Shown here piece by piece: positions 118-9,140 of a DNA stretch of 64,000 nt. The position numbers and the translations under genes were made by a program. Every line of letters begins with the position of its first letter. Positions within the stretch are counted from its first letter, which is position 1. A model generated the notes under the pieces. It saw only the letters and a program-made list of their open reading frames with translations, was not told the origin of the DNA and made no database searches. The stretch is from Spirirestis rafaelensis WJT71-NPBG6 (lineage in GTDB: Bacteria > Cyanobacteriota > Cyanobacteriia > Cyanobacteriales > Nostocaceae): positions 1-64,000 of the forward strand of contig JAHHID010000028.1 in assembly GCA_019359015.1 (NCBI GenBank). The letters run 5' to 3'.

Positions 118-490
118 GAGCTACTAGCCTGTGCTGGATGAATTGGTAAGAGTGGTCTTTTTTCTGAATCAATTACAAATACTTTGGACACAAGTCCCTC
201 CTTGCGGGTAATGTTAGCCTGGACAATGATTTAAAGGCTTTTTACGCTAACAGCACTGACTCAAACCCAATGACTCTATTTAACTGTTAACCTCAGAGCT
301 ACAAACTGGCTTGTCTAACGACACGCTTGCGCGAACGTATTCGCAGGTGAGATGACCTAAAAATCGTAGTACTCATAGTACTTAGTCGGGTAAACTCTGG
401 GCTTTTAAAGCCCCCACTGAACCTGTACTCAGGCGGCACGTTTTGGGGGGAAGCTTCCCCCCAAAAGCTGCCTTGTCAGTGGTGGGTAGT
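118..490. other. Intergenic, palindrome-rich, no gene
   Basis: No credible coding region. From about 367 to 482 the stretch contains a series of inverted repeats: AGTACT twice around CAT, GGGCTTT-T-AAAGCCC (399-413), and the large palindrome listed separately. This lies between the IS630 tail and the 3' end of the dnaJ-like gene. Confidence 0.6.
414..482. repeat. Large nested palindrome / cruciform-capable hairpin
   Basis: Positions 441-466 form a perfect 26-bp palindrome (TTTTGGGGGG, AAGCTT, CCCCCCAAAA). It is enclosed by GGCA (435-438)/TGCC (469-472) and by CCACTGA (414-420)/TCAGTGG (476-482). On the minus strand it follows the dnaJ-like stop codon closely, so it may act in 3'-end formation, but no U-run follows the stem. 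Confidence 0.75.
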
Positions 491-1495
491 TTACAGCTTG
501 ACTTGCTGCAAATGACTGCGGGGATTGTAAGTACGGATAGCGCGGAGTTTTTCATAATATTCGCGCTCTTGTTGGCTAAGGTCTTTTGGCGGAGCGATCG
601 CCACTTTCACCAACTGATCCCCACGTCCACCCTTGGCTAGATGCCAGCCTTTGCCGCGCAAACGTAAAGATTGACCAGAACGCACTCCAGCCGGAAGCTT
701 GACATTAACCATGCCATCGGGTGTCGGGACATCAATTGAGGCTCCCAAAGTGGCTTCATCTGGCGTAATTGGCACTTCGCACACCAAATTATCGCCTTCA
801 AATTGATAGAACGAGTGCGGTTGAAGTTCTACGCGCAAGTACAAATCGCCTCGTTGTTGAGTCAAAGGATTAACTTGACCTTTGCCGCGCAAACGCAGAC
901 GAGTACCGGATTTAGCACCTGCGGGAATGCGGACATCAATTGTTTCGTTACCTAAACTGAAGCGTTTTTGAACACCGTGAAAAGCTTCGCCAAAACTTAA
1001 AGTGATGGCTGCTTCGCTATCCTGTGCCGTAGCACCCGCACTCCCATCTTGAAAGCCAAAATCGCCAAAGTTACCAAAACCAGTTGGTCCATTGCTCGAA
1101 GTACTGTACGAATAGCTTTGTTGTCTAGTGCTACTGCCTGTAGTGCCTCCGAAGCGTCCTAGTAACTCATTGATAAAGTCGTCAAAACTGCCGTATTGAC
1201 CGAAGTCAAAACCGCCCATATCGACACCAGCACCACCACCAGAGGCAAAGCCTTGACCAACCTTATTCCAGTATTGACCGAATTGGTCATATTTTTTACG
1301 TTTGTCTACATCTGACAAAACTTCGTAAGCTTCGTTAACTTCTTTAAAAGTTGCTTCCGCTTGTTTATTGCCTGGATTGACATCAGGGTGGTACTTACGG
1401 GCTAGTTTACGAAAAGCTTGTTTAATTTCTTCTGGAGTGGCAGTTTTATTAACTCCCAAAATTGCATAATAGTCTTTAAAATCGGTTGCAGCCAT
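491..1495 (-). CDS. DnaJ/CbpA-type co-chaperone (type II Hsp40)
   Basis: Hsp40 co-chaperone expected to stimulate DnaK ATPase and deliver substrates in the cytoplasm. The N-terminal J domain (about residues 6-72) carries HPD at 36-38. A Gly/Phe-rich linker (about 75-150) is followed by two beta-rich C-terminal substrate-binding subdomains (about 160-315), with [14 protein letters not shown]-like and [14 protein letters not shown]-like motifs. There are no CxxCxGxG zinc-finger repeats, so this is a type II/CbpA-like protein rather than canonical DnaJ. The ATG is preceded by AGGAGG at 7 nt. It stands alone, with no dnaK or grpE beside it. Confidence 0.92.
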
Positions 1496-3858: not shown

Positions 3859-4158
3859 TTATAAAACGCTCACACGTTTCATACCATAGCGCTGATTAGC
3901 CAGATGCAATGTTTGCGACAGTTTCACATGCTCTACCCACGGCTGCTCAGACAATTGGGAAATAGCACTTGGAGACAGTGTTGCAGTGAATACATCTTTG
4001 CCACTAGCAACTCCACTGACACCTAAATTTTCTAAAGCGGCAGTTTCCGCATTTGAAACTGGCTTGGTATGAATGAAAACCTGCAAGCTAGGTTCATCTG
4101 TATTTTGAACGTCTTTGAGTGCCATAGACAGGGGGGCATCTAATTTTTGATAATTCAT
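3859..4158 (-). CDS. Stand-alone subtilisin-prodomain (I9)-like small protein
   Basis: A 99-residue protein with no catalytic residues. Its order of elements matches the N-terminal prodomain-like region of the S8 peptidase at 7410-9140. Both begin with KL.P.....A..D.Q, then a beta strand (LQVFIHT here, SIVFIYC there), then a hydrophobic/polar segment ending in LSE....H.K.S...HL. The segment SAISQLSEQPWVEHVKL is typical of inhibitor I9/prodomain folds. Inferred role: peptidase inhibitor or folding chaperone for the neighbouring protease. GGGAG lies 10 nt before the ATG. A terminator separates it from the pentapeptide gene upstream. Confidence 0.6.
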   Translation of the reverse strand: MNYQKLDAPLSMALKDVQNTDEPSLQVFIHTKPVSNAETAALENLGVSGVASGKDVFTATLSPSAISQLSEQPWVEHVKLSQTLHLANQRYGMKRVSVL

Positions 4159-4180
4159 ATTGCGACGACTCCCAGATAAA

Positions 4181-4209
4181 AAGGTAAAAAGGGTAGGCTT
4201 TTCCTACCC
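4181..4209 (-). terminator. Intrinsic terminator of the HTH/pentapeptide operon
   Basis: On the minus strand GGGTAGG-AAAAG-CCTACCC forms a 7-bp GC-rich stem followed by TTTTT. It sits between the pentapeptide gene stop (4313) and the start of the prodomain-like gene (4158), so the latter probably has its own promoter. Confidence 0.75.
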
Positions 4210-4244
4210 TATAACCAAGCTATCAAATTTATCGGTCTTTAGCC

Positions 4245-4300
4245 CCTACCCTTATACAGACGTAATGTCATGTGTTTCTACGTCTGATTGCAGATTTAAG
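4245..4300. repeat. 3'-flank direct repeat, copy B
   Basis: This segment (TACCCTTATACAGACGTAAT...CTGATTGCAGATTTAAG) is clearly related to 7364-7420 just downstream of, and overlapping, the S8 peptidase 3' end. It contains CAGACGTA/TACGTCTG as an inverted repeat. The two copies flank the HTH plus pentapeptide genes in direct orientation. Confidence 0.6.
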
Positions 4301-4312
4301 GTATTGTTCGGT

Positions 4313-6355
4313 TTACATACCCAATATTTTAGTTAGAGTCGGCAAATAAGTTTTGAGTGCTTCCGCTAGCTTGCTGGCATCAGTGACAGCGGATGTAACA
4401 CCACTGAGGGCATTTAAAGCCATCTTGCAAAATTTGGGAGTACGTTTTTCTTCTGGCTTTTTCCCTTCTTCCGCTATGGTTTCTACTGCTTCCAGCGCTT
4501 CTTGCTTTTGACTGTCAGAAAGTGCAGCATCATCAGCAATAGATTTTTGCAGGATGGTTAGAATCTTCGCTAGTTCGTCGCTACTGTCAGTTTTAACATC
4601 GCTCAACTGCTGAATCGTATTAGTAACATTGTTAAGAGCGCCTGTCAAACTTGAAGCAGTGAGGTTCATATCTCCACCTGCGGATATTTTGTCACCAGTA
4701 TCTAAATTTCCTCCGACATTTCCACGAATGTTGATACCTTCATTTTTACTTTCCATAATTTCTCCTTGATTAAGCATATATACGCGATTACCTTCACCCT
4801 GAATTAATACTTGTCTACCCGTACCTGCGACAACAGAAGCTAATTCTTTAATAATTTGGTAATTTGATGCAATTATTTCTCTTAACCTTTGTATTTCTCC
4901 ATCTTTAGCTTGTAGAACTAATGGAATATTTGCTTCAATCAGGTTGAGTGTATTTGCATAACAAGTTGTAAATGCTTGGTGAATAGCGCTATGATTAGCA
5001 TCTGGAAATACACCTATTTTGGCAAAAACCAGACTCTCATCTTTTCTTGTAATGCTATATCGCGATAAATCCAATCCATCATGATTGATAGCTGTTTGCG
5101 CTAAAGAAAAAATAAAAGCTCGCCAATTTAATCCTTGTCTGAAAATTAAATCAACTGTATTTTGAATTTCTCCAATCCACTTTTCAAATTCCCCTGGTTT
5201 AAATTCACCACTATCTGGCTTACGTTCCTCAAGTCGAATAATATTATTATCTCTTGTGCATTTTAAAAAAATATGTGTACATTTCACATCAAGAAAACGT
5301 GTATTTTTATTAATATTCAATCCTTGGATACAAGCACCCGTCAAAGTAGCACCAGAAAAATCTGCATCTAAAGCATTAACTTCATTTAAATATGCTTTTG
5401 TTAAATCAGCATTTTTTAAATTAGCACCGGAGAAATTTGCTCCAGTATAATCTTGTTCATCACCTTCTTTTTTTATCAATAATTTTCTCACTTTCGGATT
5501 TTCCAGAATTGTTCCTTGTAACCGAGAAGATTCTAATCCTCTTACATTTTCAAAACTTGTACGAGTTAAATTAGCTTTTCTAAAATCTGTGTGCGGTAAA
5601 TGTGCGTTATCAAAGCAAGCATCTGTTAAATCGGCTTCGTAAAATGATGTCCCACCCGTCGCAGATAAAAAAACCGCGATTTTTTTCAACCAAACAAATT
5701 TAGGTGAATCTTTCATTGCTTGTTGAGCAATCGTAGCACCTGTAAAAAGAATTAATAGTGAGATAACTGTAATGATAGTATTTTTAAATTGCTCATTTTC
5801 GCTGGCAGTGTTTTTGACAATAATAGGTAAAAATATAGCAGTTATAGCTGAAATTAGTATTGATGTAATATTTCCAAAAAAACCAAAAAACGTATAAGAT
5901 ATGGTAATAGAAAAGGCTGTAACTATCACTCCTAGCCAATTACAAAGTATACTAAAACTTAAGAATAGAGCATCACCCCATATTTTATTATCATCAGGAT
6001 GGTAGAAAAAAATAAAAAATACGGTAGTAATAATTATTAACGTTGTAATAAAACAAGTAGTTATCAGCTCAAAACCGCTAATTATAGGTAAAACTAGAGT
6101 AATAGCATATACAAGAAAACTAAACAATATAAAAATTAATGGATAGCCTTGTTTTAAACCATGAGAGATAATAATTCCTGATACAGCCGCTGAGAAAACA
6201 GGTATAATACTTAACAGTTCGACTACAATAATCACCAAAGCCCCTATCCACAAATTGTGGACAAATTTTCTACCAGCTTTTGCTGTCTGAAAACTTTCAT
6301 TCTTTAACGTTTCTTTTCGGAAACACGCGCTGCGAATATCTTTGATGTTTGACAT
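4313..6355 (-). CDS. Membrane protein with pentapeptide repeats and glycine-rich/helical tail
   Basis: About 680 residues from the ATG at 6355; a TTG at 6376 overlaps the upstream stop codon but is less likely. The N-terminal third (about 30-230) has six or more hydrophobic membrane segments. About 240-350 holds pentapeptide repeats (A(D/N)L/F pattern, e.g. ANFSGANLKNADLTKAYL), expected to fold as a right-handed quadrilateral beta-helix. The middle is globular and unassigned. Near residue 560 a glycine-rich stretch (NIRGNVGGNLDTGDKISAGG) leads into an amphipathic helical tail seen in other cyanobacterial accessory proteins. The substrate or partner is unknown. It is cotranscribed with the triple-HTH gene. 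Low GC and AT-rich codons suggest acquired DNA. Confidence 0.75.
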   Translation of the reverse strand: MSNIKDIRSACFRKETLKNESFQTAKAGRKFVHNLWIGALVIIVVELLSIIPVFSAAVSGIIISHGLKQGYPLIFILFSFLVYAITLVLPIISGFELITTCFITTLIIITTVFFIFFYHPDDNKIWGDALFLSFSILCNWLGVIVTAFSITISYTFFGFFGNITSILISAITAIFLPIIVKNTASENEQFKNTIITVISLLILFTGATIAQQAMKDSPKFVWLKKIAVFLSATGGTSFYEADLTDACFDNAHLPHTDFRKANLTRTSFENVRGLESSRLQGTILENPKVRKLLIKKEGDEQDYTGANFSGANLKNADLTKAYLNEVNALDADFSGATLTGACIQGLNINKNTRFLDVKCTHIFLKCTRDNNIIRLEERKPDSGEFKPGEFEKWIGEIQNTVDLIFRQGLNWRAFIFSLAQTAINHDGLDLSRYSITRKDESLVFAKIGVFPDANHSAIHQAFTTCYANTLNLIEANIPLVLQAKDGEIQRLREIIASNYQIIKELASVVAGTGRQVLIQGEGNRVYMLNQGEIMESKNEGINIRGNVGGNLDTGDKISAGGDMNLTASSLTGALNNVTNTIQQLSDVKTDSSDELAKILTILQKSIADDAALSDSQKQEALEAVETIAEEGKKPEEKRTPKFCKMALNALSGVTSAVTDASKLAEALKTYLPTLTKILGM

Positions 6356-6369
6356 TTTGCTTAATCTTT

Positions 6370-7128
6370 CTAACAAAACGATAAAGCATTATTAGTAATT
6401 TCACAAACAGTGTCTTTCAAATCTAATGGTATCCGTAAATCAATGTCTTCCAGATTAATTTTTAGTAAAGAATGATTTTTCTCTCTCAATTCTGATACTG
6501 TTTGATTTTTGTCTCTGTCTAAGAAAACTTTTGAATCTTCTAAATCAAGATTAATTAATGAATCAATATCAACTGGTTGTGTAGCTAATAAACTAATAAA
6601 TTCTAAATTTATTCCTGTTAGAATACTATACTCCTCCAGAAGTATGCCTCTATCTTGTATCATTTTATGAATACAAAGCTTAGTTATTGGCAAATCTGCT
6701 GTTACTAGCAAATCTTCAATACAACAATTTAAAACTTTAGTAATGTCATTAAGGTGTTTTTGACATTGAGATTCTGCAAGTTTTTGCTGAGAAATAGGCT
6801 GCGTACTATAGAATGCTAGTACTGCAAAGTTTACGCCGGAAAGCTTGCTTAACTCTGCAAGCGATAACTTATTCTCTTTAGCTAGTTCAAGTATCTTCAG
6901 TCTGAAAGCTTCTTGCTTGGCAACAGGTTTGACTAACTCAATCACAGGTACATTAAGTTGTTCGGCAATTTTTCTAAGATGTTCAGCTATTATCTTTGTG
7001 ATAGCTTCAATAGTTGGAGATGTTATATATGCTTGAATAGCCTTCAACGGAACGTTTGAATCGTTGCTAAGTGTCTCTGGGGATAAATTTATATCTTCGA
7101 TAATTTCTTTTATACGTAAAGTAATCAT
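6370..7128 (-). CDS. Protein with three tandem XRE/HTH-like units
   Basis: 252 residues containing three diverged copies of one unit, near residues 8-65, 75-145 and 150-190. Each has an L(S/L)xExxSxx(S/T)G(V/I)N-like helix-turn-helix core; compare LSPETLSNDSNV, LSLAELSKLSGVN and LLEEYSILTGIN. Two units are followed by a (S/A)TQP(I/V) turn. The fold resembles lambda-repressor-type HTH domains but the copies are degenerate, so DNA binding is uncertain. It precedes the pentapeptide gene by 14 bp and probably shares its transcript. AAGGA precedes the ATG by 8 nt. A regulator or adaptor for the downstream membrane protein is plausible. Confidence 0.65.
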   Translation of the reverse strand: MITLRIKEIIEDINLSPETLSNDSNVPLKAIQAYITSPTIEAITKIIAEHLRKIAEQLNVPVIELVKPVAKQEAFRLKILELAKENKLSLAELSKLSGVNFAVLAFYSTQPISQQKLAESQCQKHLNDITKVLNCCIEDLLVTADLPITKLCIHKMIQDRGILLEEYSILTGINLEFISLLATQPVDIDSLINLDLEDSKVFLDRDKNQTVSELREKNHSLLKINLEDIDLRIPLDLKDTVCEITNNALSFC

Positions 7129-7348
7129 TAGTACGTTCCTTTTGAAACTGTTATATTTAAATTCACTTACACTAACAAAAATTACTGAAAACAGTTAAAA
7201 GATTTACTATAATTTTATGTTATACCCAAAAATATACGTGTTTATACTAAAAAAAAGTTAGCAAATGTGTTCCCAGTCTGTTGTGCCTTTAAAAGCGCGA
7301 TCGCCTAAATTAACTTGGCTAAATAATCACGTTCCTTTCCTAAGCAAC

Positions 7349-7375
7349 AAGGGCAAGCTTTTTTTGCTTACCCTT
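7349..7375 (-). terminator. Probable terminator of the S8 peptidase gene
   Basis: AAGGGCAAGC (7349-7358) and GCTTACCCTT (7366-7375) form a ten-position stem with one mismatch around a T7 loop, just after the peptidase stop codon. The downstream U-run is weak. Confidence 0.5.
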
Positions 7376-7420
7376 GTACAGACCTGATTTACTGTGCTTC
7401 TATGCCTGATTAAAGATTTT
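7364..7420. repeat. 3'-flank direct repeat, copy A
   Basis: Related to 4245-4300. Shared core: TACCCTT(G/A)TACAGAC...TGTG(C/T)TTCTA(T/C)G(C/T)CTGATT..AGATTT. Copy A overlaps the last codons of the S8 peptidase. This suggests copy B derives from a duplicated peptidase 3' end or from a shared 3' regulatory structure. Confidence 0.6.
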
Positions 7421-9140
7421 TAGCATCAATCAATCCAAAGCCCCACTTACTATCAAACGTTCCCGCTGCTTTTTGCGGGATCAAACTATTTTTGCGTAAC
7501 AATTCTTTAACACCAGCTGGGTCAAGTTTGGGGTTACGTTGCAACAACAGTGCCACCAAACCAGTAACGAAAGGTGTTGCCATACTAGTGCCAGCGGAAA
7601 CCACAAACTTAGAATTAATCATCGACGATCGCCCAAAACCTTGAGCAGTAGATGAAAGCGTAGAAACAATCATCGCTCCTGGTGCTGCGACATCCGGCTT
7701 GTGGGCATCATTCCGCAGCGGACCTTCACTGCTAAAATCAGAGATATCATGCAATTCCAAGCCCACTTCTTGAGGTTTGGCATCAATATCTGTATATTTC
7801 ACTTTCGTAGTGTAGGAAGCCACCGTAACTGCACTCTTGCAAGCTCCTGGGGAACCAATTTTCACAGCATCTTGCACGCTTTTGCCGGTGAAAAATACTG
7901 CCGAGCGATCGTCTAACGTCCACACATCCAAACGTGTTTCACTCGAACCTGTGTTGCGTATCCGCAATTGCCAAATGCCGCCCATAACTGGCATTGTACC
8001 ATTACCGCGAACTTGCACAAAGAAATTATGGTCGCCATTCATCGGATCGGGTCCTGGTGTGGCTATTTGCACCTGTGCATCTGGCAATTGGTAATCTTGG
8101 GTGGGATTGCCTTTTGTAATGATTTTTTGGAAGGGGGTAACAAAACCGTTAGGACTCCGCACAGATACTTCTAACTGACCTTTGCCAGAATACCAACCGT
8201 TTAACCAGGCAATGCCTACTTGGTTTTGAGGAACATTAAAACGCATATTACACATGCGACTGGTAGAGACTTTCGATTGAGCATGAATGTTGTCGTTACC
8301 CTCATTACCTGCGGCACAGCATACAATTCTTCCAGGACCAGTTTCAGCATCAATAATTTTTGATAAGGAATCGCTGCCATCATGAGCATCAGCGTGTCCG
8401 CCCAAGCTCAAATTTACCACTGCTGGGCGTTTTAGTTCACTGGCAACGCGGAAAATGTAACGAACTGCATCGGCAATGTGAGCATCTTGTAAATCACTTT
8501 TGACGATGACTAATTCGGCTTTTGGTGCGACACCGCTATAAGTGCTGTCAGCAGCGGAGGCAATGCCGGCAACGTGGGTGCCGTGTCCTTCTATATCCTG
8601 AGAAATTGTCAGTTGCTCTTTGCTTAATTCTGCTCCGTAAGCACCTTCTTTAACACCGGGACCGGGTAGAGTTTGATCCCAAATGCGTAAAATTCGATCT
8701 TTAAAAGCAGGGTGCTTCGCATCGATACCGGTGTCTACAATGCCAATAACGACTTTCTCCCCTGTCAGTCCGCTTTTGTTTTGAAACTCTGGCACATACA
8801 CTGCTTTTTTGGCATCATCCATCCGCAGGTGCATTTTGCGTGAAGGCTTGATGCGATGGACAACAGCTTCTTCAGATAAGGGGTCTAAACTATTTATGGG
8901 TAAGTAAGCTGTCCGCACACTTCCGGTGTTTTGGTTGACTTCGATACCTTGTTGTAATAGATGTCTTAAGTCAGCGTCTTCGTCGCAGTAAATAAAAACG
9001 ATGCTCTTGGTTTGCTGCATAGCGTTTCTGGATGCCATGATACCAAGCGATCGCTTCTGTGTAGTTAAACCTTGCGCTCCTTCGCGTTGGTAGTCTTCAT
9101 AAGCTAATAGCAGACCAGGTGAAAGTTTTTCGTGTCTCAT
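7410..9140 (-). CDS. Subtilisin-like S8 family serine peptidase
   Basis: 576 residues with an intact catalytic triad: Asp136 in GIVDTGID, His186 in GHGTHVAG and Ser519 in GTSMATP. The oxyanion Asn279 lies in CCAAGNEGND. There is no secretion signal, so it is probably cytoplasmic. Residues 1-110 form a prodomain-like region matching the small protein at 3859-4158. Residues about 295-430 are a beta-sandwich insertion (RFNVPQNQVGIAWLNGWY...) as in large S8 enzymes, and may recognise substrate. GAGGT precedes the ATG by 6 nt. Probably monocistronic given the hairpin downstream. Confidence 0.92.
   Translation of the reverse strand: MRHEKLSPGLLLAYEDYQREGAQGLTTQKRSLGIMASRNAMQQTKSIVFIYCDEDADLRHLLQQGIEVNQNTGSVRTAYLPINSLDPLSEEAVVHRIKPSRKMHLRMDDAKKAVYVPEFQNKSGLTGEKVVIGIVDTGIDAKHPAFKDRILRIWDQTLPGPGVKEGAYGAELSKEQLTISQDIEGHGTHVAGIASAADSTYSGVAPKAELVIVKSDLQDAHIADAVRYIFRVASELKRPAVVNLSLGGHADAHDGSDSLSKIIDAETGPGRIVCCAAGNEGNDNIHAQSKVSTSRMCNMRFNVPQNQVGIAWLNGWYSGKGQLEVSVRSPNGFVTPFQKIITKGNPTQDYQLPDAQVQIATPGPDPMNGDHNFFVQVRGNGTMPVMGGIWQLRIRNTGSSETRLDVWTLDDRSAVFFTGKSVQDAVKIGSPGACKSAVTVASYTTKVKYTDIDAKPQEVGLELHDISDFSSEGPLRNDAHKPDVAAPGAMIVSTLSSTAQGFGRSSMINSKFVVSAGTSMATPFVTGLVALLLQRNPKLDPAGVKELLRKNSLIPQKAAGTFDSKWGFGLIDAKNL

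What the first reader, a model, noticed from the sequence alone, without database searches (positions are those of the whole stretch)
3859..9140. Candidate new module: S8 peptidase, detached prodomain-like protein, triple-HTH protein and membrane pentapeptide protein
The 99-residue protein at 3859-4158 follows the same element order as the N-terminal 110 residues of the S8 peptidase at 7410-9140, so it looks like a paralogous prodomain that can act in trans. Between them lies a two-gene operon: a protein with three HTH-like units and a pentapeptide/membrane protein. Peptidase plus trans inhibitor plus membrane protein is an arrangement that could form a conflict or stress system, with the peptidase released when the inhibitor is lost. 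I know no described system with this set; the grouping is inference from proximity.
Basis: inference. Interest (0 to 1): 0.66.

Follow-up and report, generated by a model that had tools for sequence, protein, structure and literature searches.

The report
Bacterial protease paired with detached prodomain
A cyanobacterial cell-internal protease is inherited together with a small separate protein that is a copy of the protease's own built-in inhibitory front domain, and the same pair occurs in unrelated bacteria; the two genes lying between them here are a separate insert, not part of the system.

Summary
The 99-aa protein (3859-4158) is homologous, end to end, to the first 107 residues of the S8 peptidase (7410-9140): profile-profile score 63.5, against at most 18.8 for 100 column-permuted controls. 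The pairing also holds. In 386 cyanobacterial genomes the two genes co-occur in 16 of 17 genomes that have the peptidase. They are normally 45-540 bp apart on the same strand, peptidase first. They stay together in genomes where the genes have become unlinked. The same adjacent pair is in an actinomycete (Embleya), and a similar S8 plus 85-aa prodomain-like pair is on rhizobial plasmids.

The four-gene grouping does not hold. The HTH and membrane-pentapeptide genes are an independent pair. A close relative has an empty site, a repeat of the peptidase 3' end flanks the insert, and the pair occurs elsewhere without the peptidase. It does recur at this spot in five other Nostocales, but other loci hold unrelated cargo there.

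Best explanation: a Csp-like subtilase with a central jellyroll, plus a detached paralogue of its prodomain acting in trans, most likely as an inhibitor. Binding and inhibition are inferred. Stand-alone propeptide inhibitors are known in eukaryotes; I found no described bacterial case.

The parts
7410..9140 (-). S8 peptidase (576 aa, no signal peptide evident): N-terminal prodomain-like domain, subtilase domain with Asp136/His186/Asn279/Ser519, central jellyroll insertion
   Evidence: PF00082 E 1.8e-47; invariant catalytic residues; no hydrophobic segment; Foldseek best match CspB 4i0w E 1.2e-18
8820..9140 (-). N-terminal domain of the S8 peptidase (residues 1-107), the cis copy of the prodomain
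   Evidence: profile-profile match to the 99-aa family, score 63.5 against a permuted maximum of 18.8
7914..8279 (-). central jellyroll insertion of the peptidase (about residues 288-409), limits approximate
   Evidence: nine strands at block pLDDT mostly 64-87 in the model of the L086 homologue; CspB, CspA and CspC are the top fold matches
3859..4158 (-). 99-aa stand-alone prodomain paralogue, proposed trans inhibitor
   Evidence: homology to S8 residues 1-107; 114 relatives encoded in genome contigs; dN/dS below 1
4190..4210 (-). conserved stem-loop followed by a T-run in the leader of the 99-aa gene (terminator- or attenuator-like)
   Evidence: found by the scan; 9 pairs, 88.7% of cells paired, 35 cells with double changes against 13.9 shuffled, collapses when slid; kept when the S8 gene is unlinked (L071, L134)
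7369..7419 (-). upstream copy of a 51-bp imperfect direct repeat: the 3' end of the S8 gene and the sequence after it
   Evidence: score 58 against a shuffled maximum of 35 with the downstream copy
4247..4297 (-). downstream copy of the same repeat; aligns with the undivided S8-small intergenic region of relative G240
6370..7128 (-). HTH-repeat protein (252 aa): first gene of the insert, not part of the peptidase system
   Evidence: HTH_26 E 1.2e-4; next to the pentapeptide gene in six genomes without the S8
4313..6376 (-). membrane pentapeptide-repeat protein (687 aa): second gene of the insert, not part of the peptidase system
   Evidence: PF00805 E 6.3e-17; six hydrophobic segments; remnant of its 3' end in relative L072

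Best explanation
A two-gene system: a cell-internal, Csp-like subtilase with its own N-terminal prodomain, and a separately made paralogue of that prodomain. The stand-alone protein most likely docks on the catalytic domain as the cis prodomain does, with its C-terminal segment (LSQxLxL and the few residues after it) lying in the active site like a cleavage product, and so holds the processed peptidase inactive. Activity would then depend on the ratio of inhibitor to peptidase, and would be released when the small protein is titrated, degraded or not made; a stem-loop with a T-run before its gene could set that ratio. Shown: homology, linkage, co-occurrence across phyla, selection on the small gene, covarying stem-loop. 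Inferred: binding, inhibition, release, cellular role. The HTH and pentapeptide genes are a passenger pair in an insertion-prone spot.
For: Collinear homology of the small protein with S8 residues 1-107, including the N-terminal K-L-x3-L-x2-A motif. Co-occurrence 16 of 17 in 386 genomes, kept in 16 of 17 genomes checked by handle, most of them unlinked. Adjacent in 53 of 64 loci with both genes on the fetched stretch. Embleya: S8 46% identical and small protein 38% identical, 121 bp apart. Four rhizobial plasmids: S8 plus an 85-aa protein about 90-125 bp downstream, matching another rhizobial S8's cis prodomain beyond 1000 shuffles. The published CspB prodomain, that of the nearest solved relative, folds and blocks the enzyme when supplied in trans and stays bound (PMC3567191). 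The malaria SUB1-ProM gene, a stand-alone propeptide, lies beside subtilase genes and inhibits SUB1 (PMC6993865).
Against: No complex was resolved: both AlphaFold2 models of read-through fusions had mean pLDDT 51-52. The small protein is below the Pfam I9 cut-off (15.6 against 21.2 bits) and only weakly matches canonical I9 profiles. The peptidase already carries a cis prodomain, so a trans copy could serve as a chaperone instead. One complete genome (G229) has the S8 without a detectable small gene.
Confidence: 0.6

Rival explanations
1. Trans chaperone: the stand-alone prodomain helps the peptidase fold or be processed and is not mainly an inhibitor.
For: Subtilase prodomains are foldases, and the CspB prodomain restores folding when co-expressed in trans (PMC3567191). 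Peptidase and small protein are co-inherited.
Against: The peptidase keeps a conserved cis prodomain of its own in every homologue aligned, which makes a second foldase redundant.
Confidence: 0.2
2. The small protein is a regulated substrate, adaptor or activator that displaces the cis prodomain, so it switches the peptidase on.
For: It shares the docking surface by homology; CspB keeps its cis prodomain bound after cleavage (PMC3567191), so a competitor could help to remove it.
Against: A homologue with the same tail would occupy the same site and block it; no precedent was found for an activating propeptide paralogue.
Confidence: 0.1
3. One reading: peptidase, inhibitor, HTH regulator and membrane pentapeptide protein work together.
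For: The HTH and pentapeptide pair sits between the two genes in the window and in L093, L096, L104, L114 and L136, and left a remnant in L072. The C-terminus of the pentapeptide protein matches a PADLOC candidate family.
Against: 53 of 64 loci have nothing of that size between the genes. The pair occurs without S8 or small protein in six genomes (with 10, 11). Other loci hold CHAT, trypsin, Uma2, lectin or RHS cargo at the same spot. A duplicated S8 3' end flanks the insert.
Confidence: 0.05

Closest known systems
CspB / CspA / CspC germination subtilases of clostridia (PDB 4i0w, 6mw4, 9pr8, 9pr9)
   Same: Top structural and sequence matches: subtilase with a jellyroll inserted in the catalytic domain and an N-terminal prodomain
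   Different: In the Csps the prodomain is the cis one only; no separate prodomain gene is described in the paper read. NCBIfam Csp cut-offs are far from met. The cyanobacterial host has no spore germination system of that kind.
Stand-alone propeptide-like inhibitors: malaria SUB1-ProM, Toxoplasma MIC5, yeast proteinase B inhibitor, Pleurotus POIA1, Arabidopsis SPI-1
   Same: A small protein resembling a subtilase propeptide encoded by its own gene; SUB1-ProM also lies next to subtilase genes (PMC6993865)
   Different: All are eukaryotic. Here the sequence paralogy to the neighbouring peptidase's own prodomain is plain, and the pair is bacterial and co-inherited across phyla. Inhibition is untested here.
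PopC/PopD of Myxococcus xanthus
   Same: A subtilisin-like protease without a signal peptide, held by a small separate protein that forms a complex with it until PopD is degraded (PMC6434023)
MEROPS/Pfam Inhibitor_I9 (PF05922)
   Same: Position, predicted order of strands and helices, and a weak match over the C-terminal half
   Different: Below the curated cut-off, so not filed as a member

Membership tests
S8 subtilase family (PF00082) | score above the curated cut-off and intact catalytic Asp, His, Ser and oxyanion Asn | tested here: met
   162.5 bits against 21.8; D136, H186, N279, S519 invariant
Csp-like subtilases | jellyroll domain inserted in the middle of the catalytic domain | tested here: met
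   nine-strand region between the catalytic halves, block pLDDT mostly 64-87; CspB, CspA, CspC top matches. The subtilase part of the model is of low confidence.
Csp germination proteases proper (NCBIfam NF040809, NF040808) | curated family cut-off | tested here: not met
   116.5 bits against 1250 and 80.4 against 675
Inhibitor_I9 (PF05922) | curated cut-off | tested here: not met
   15.6 against 21.2 bits; 2 of 15 family members listed at all
Inhibitor_I9 (PF05922) | I9-like fold | tested here: inconclusive
   predicted helix-strand-helix-strand-helix-strand order; hhalign 20.2 against a permuted maximum of 15.1 for small plus cis profile, 14.0 against 15.6 for the small family alone; no PDB sequence match
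Stand-alone propeptide-like inhibitor | own gene, homologous to a subtilase prodomain | tested here: met
Stand-alone propeptide-like inhibitor | inhibits a subtilase | not testable with these tools
   needs an enzyme assay
PopC/PopD-like pair | cell-internal subtilase with a separate small partner protein | tested here: inconclusive
   no signal-like or hydrophobic segment in either protein and partner gene adjacent; homology of the small protein to PopD not tested
Known anti-phage defence system (PADLOC) | specific match of the components to a described system | tested here: not met
   only generic subtilase and partial IetS matches; no hit for the small protein

The most novel reading that the evidence does not exclude
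A widespread bacterial class of cell-internal subtilases that are controlled by a separately encoded, duplicated copy of their own prodomain, found in Cyanobacteria, Actinomycetota and Alphaproteobacteria, with inhibitor supply in the cyanobacteria set by an attenuator-like leader.
Probability: 0.45. Interest if true: 0.68.

Novelty: new variant of a known kind. Interest (0 to 1): 0.5.

Why it matters
How bacteria keep subtilases safe inside the cell is known for few cases. A conserved peptidase and prodomain-paralogue pair gives a simple, testable rule (ratio of free prodomain to enzyme), explains a small uncharacterised gene in many cyanobacteria and in an actinomycete, and suggests that stand-alone propeptide inhibitors, so far described in eukaryotes, have a bacterial counterpart whose origin by duplication can still be read from the sequence. 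It may also give a way to look at PopC/PopD.

Tried and rejected
Complex prediction: fusions of peptidase and small protein, read through the stop codons of a relative where the genes are in frame (L086; a modelling device, no claim of read-through), with and without the cis prodomain. Mean pLDDT 51.9 and 50.6, so no statement on the interface. PDB sequence searches with the small family and with small plus cis profiles gave only chance hits. Filing the small protein under I9 was rejected because it is below the cut-off. Small protein in phages: no match. G377's weak small-protein hit (E 4e-5) has no S8 and is taken as chance or unrelated. A plain terminator-like scan of leaders is uninformative, since 81% of shuffles also pass; only the covariation test is used. 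The VIA-align list covered model residues 111-581 only, so it says nothing on the prodomain-like parts. Sphingobium's 92-aa neighbour matches a rhizobial cis prodomain (59 against a null maximum of 51) but not its own S8 beyond chance (58 of 1000 shuffles), so it was left out of the count. The Agrobacterium 85-aa protein likewise does not match its own S8's N-terminal part beyond chance (178 of 1000); its prodomain nature rests on the match to another rhizobial S8 and to the cyanobacterial families.

Full report
What was checked. The window lies in a cyanobacterial genome; the nearest relatives are Hassallia, Tolypothrix and Plectonema, 89-94% identical in the small protein. All four ORFs exist at the stated places. 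The 7410-9140 product is a subtilase with an intact, invariant catalytic set.

Homology of the 99-aa protein to the peptidase's N-terminus. Pairwise BLASTP gives E 0.001 over 63 residues. Family profiles give hhalign E 3.8e-9. With 81 small proteins and 64 S8 N-termini the score is 63.5, aligned 1-87 to 1-106, against a maximum of 18.8 for 100 column permutations, 16.3 for the reversed profile, and 14 or less for the three other parts of the peptidase. Removing the N-terminal motif still leaves a score of about 50. Run as an HMM over 386 genomes, the small family finds its own gene, the S8 N-terminus in G380, G004, G495 and G490, and one weak unrelated hit. So the detached prodomain is a paralogue, not a look-alike.

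Association of the two genes. In 243 genomes of the order, 11 have the small gene and 13 the peptidase. In 386 genomes of the phylum, 16 have both, one has the peptidase alone (G229), and one has a weak small-protein hit alone; Fisher p is 3e-26, with the caution that genomes are related. A scan of named genomes gave 114 encoded relatives, 80 kept. Where the peptidase lies on the fetched stretch it is always upstream and on the same strand, and the gap is 45-537 bp in 53 of 64 loci. Of 17 genomes checked by handle, most of them cases where the peptidase was missing from the fetched stretch or far away, 16 have it; the exception is a 3-Mb metagenome bin. Outside Cyanobacteria, a plasmid record of the actinomycete Embleya sp. 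NBC_00896 encodes both, 46% and 38% identical, about 121 bp apart; the gene table held for that record lists nothing there, but that table is incomplete. On plasmids of Agrobacterium leguminum, Rhizobium leguminosarum WSM1325, R. etli Mim1 and Rhizobium sp. TH2, a related S8 is followed about 90-125 bp downstream by an 84- or 85-aa protein. The Agrobacterium protein matches the cis prodomain of another rhizobial S8 (score 80, null maximum 51), and the group matches the cyanobacterial small family by profile (28.0 against a permuted maximum of 14.0). The rhizobial link is remote, and I count it as the same arrangement, not proven orthology.

The genes between. The HTH and pentapeptide genes are not part of this. 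Hassallia (L069), whose peptidase is 94% identical, has an ordinary spacing of about 130 bp. In the window a 51-bp imperfect repeat of the S8 3' end and what follows flanks the two genes, and the downstream copy aligns with the undivided intergenic region of G240. Plectonema (L072) keeps a remnant of the pentapeptide gene's 3' end, so the insert was also lost. The pair stays together in six genomes that have neither peptidase nor small gene (with 10, 11). It also recurs at this very spot in five other loci, and other loci carry CHAT, trypsin-like, pentapeptide, Uma2, ricin-lectin, RHS/RTX or DUF2267 genes there. The spot is an insertion hotspot. Recurrence of the same pair could mean one old insertion with many losses or repeated insertion; I did not separate these.

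Nature of the peptidase. Sequence and fold searches put it nearest the clostridial Csp proteases and archaeal Tk-SP. The model of a homologue shows nine strands between the halves of the subtilase domain, as in CspB's inserted jellyroll, at block pLDDT mostly 64-87, although the subtilase part itself is poorly modelled. No signal peptide or hydrophobic segment is seen in peptidase or small protein, so both are probably cytoplasmic; this rests on a hydropathy scan only.

Mechanism. For the nearest solved relative, CspB, the prodomain stays bound, fits its last residues into the active site, and both folds and blocks the enzyme when supplied in trans (PMC3567191). A stand-alone paralogue that keeps the C-terminal segment equivalent to the prodomain tail is therefore best read as a trans inhibitor, with chaperone and activator readings as rivals. 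The predictions made here did not resolve the complex. Between the genes lies a stem-loop with a T-run, about 30 nt before the small gene, with 35 doubly changed cells against 13.9 in shuffles. It stays with the small gene when the peptidase is elsewhere (L071, L134), which suggests a leader element of the small gene rather than only a peptidase terminator. The shuffle control does not keep relatedness; the control that slides the partner columns does, and there the doubly changed cells drop from 35 to 10 or fewer.

Comparison. Stand-alone propeptide-like inhibitors are known from fungi, plants and apicomplexans, and SUB1-ProM lies beside subtilase genes (PMC6993865). PopC/PopD is a bacterial subtilase held by a separate small protein (PMC6434023). 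I found no paper on a bacterial prodomain paralogue of this kind in the library searched; that library lacks most subscription journals. I therefore rate it a new variant of a known kind.

Noticed in passing
window 208-494 (-): HEARO RNA (RF02033, 118 bits), next to a dnaJ-like gene at 491-1495.
   Followed up: no
window 4190-4210 (-); relatives in alignment A6: Covarying stem-loop plus T-run in the leader of the 99-aa gene; no Rfam family was reported there.
   Followed up: partly
L092, L093, L096, L097, L104, L107, L113, L114, L120, L136, L146 between the S8 and the small gene: The S8-small junction is an insertion hotspot with changing cargo (CHAT, trypsin-like, pentapeptide, Uma2, lectin, RHS/RTX). 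A copy of the S8 3' end follows the cargo in many loci.
   Followed up: partly
window 4313-6376 (-): The C-terminal ~100 residues of the pentapeptide protein match PADLOC PDC-M14B (E 7e-8), suggesting a domain shared with candidate defence proteins.
   Followed up: no
L205 4456-6057, L207 2967-4571, L209 2963-4567: In three rhizobial plasmids the S8 and 85-aa pair is followed by a phospholipase D-like gene; the WSM1325 one matches DrmC models, a possible three-gene unit.
   Followed up: no
L060 (G104): The S8 match is in two pieces in different frames in this genome, with a stop inside one, while the small gene is intact.
   Followed up: no
L210 (Leisingera sp. M658 plasmid): An 88-aa stand-alone prodomain-like protein with no S8 of this kind found in the fetched stretch.
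   Followed up: partly
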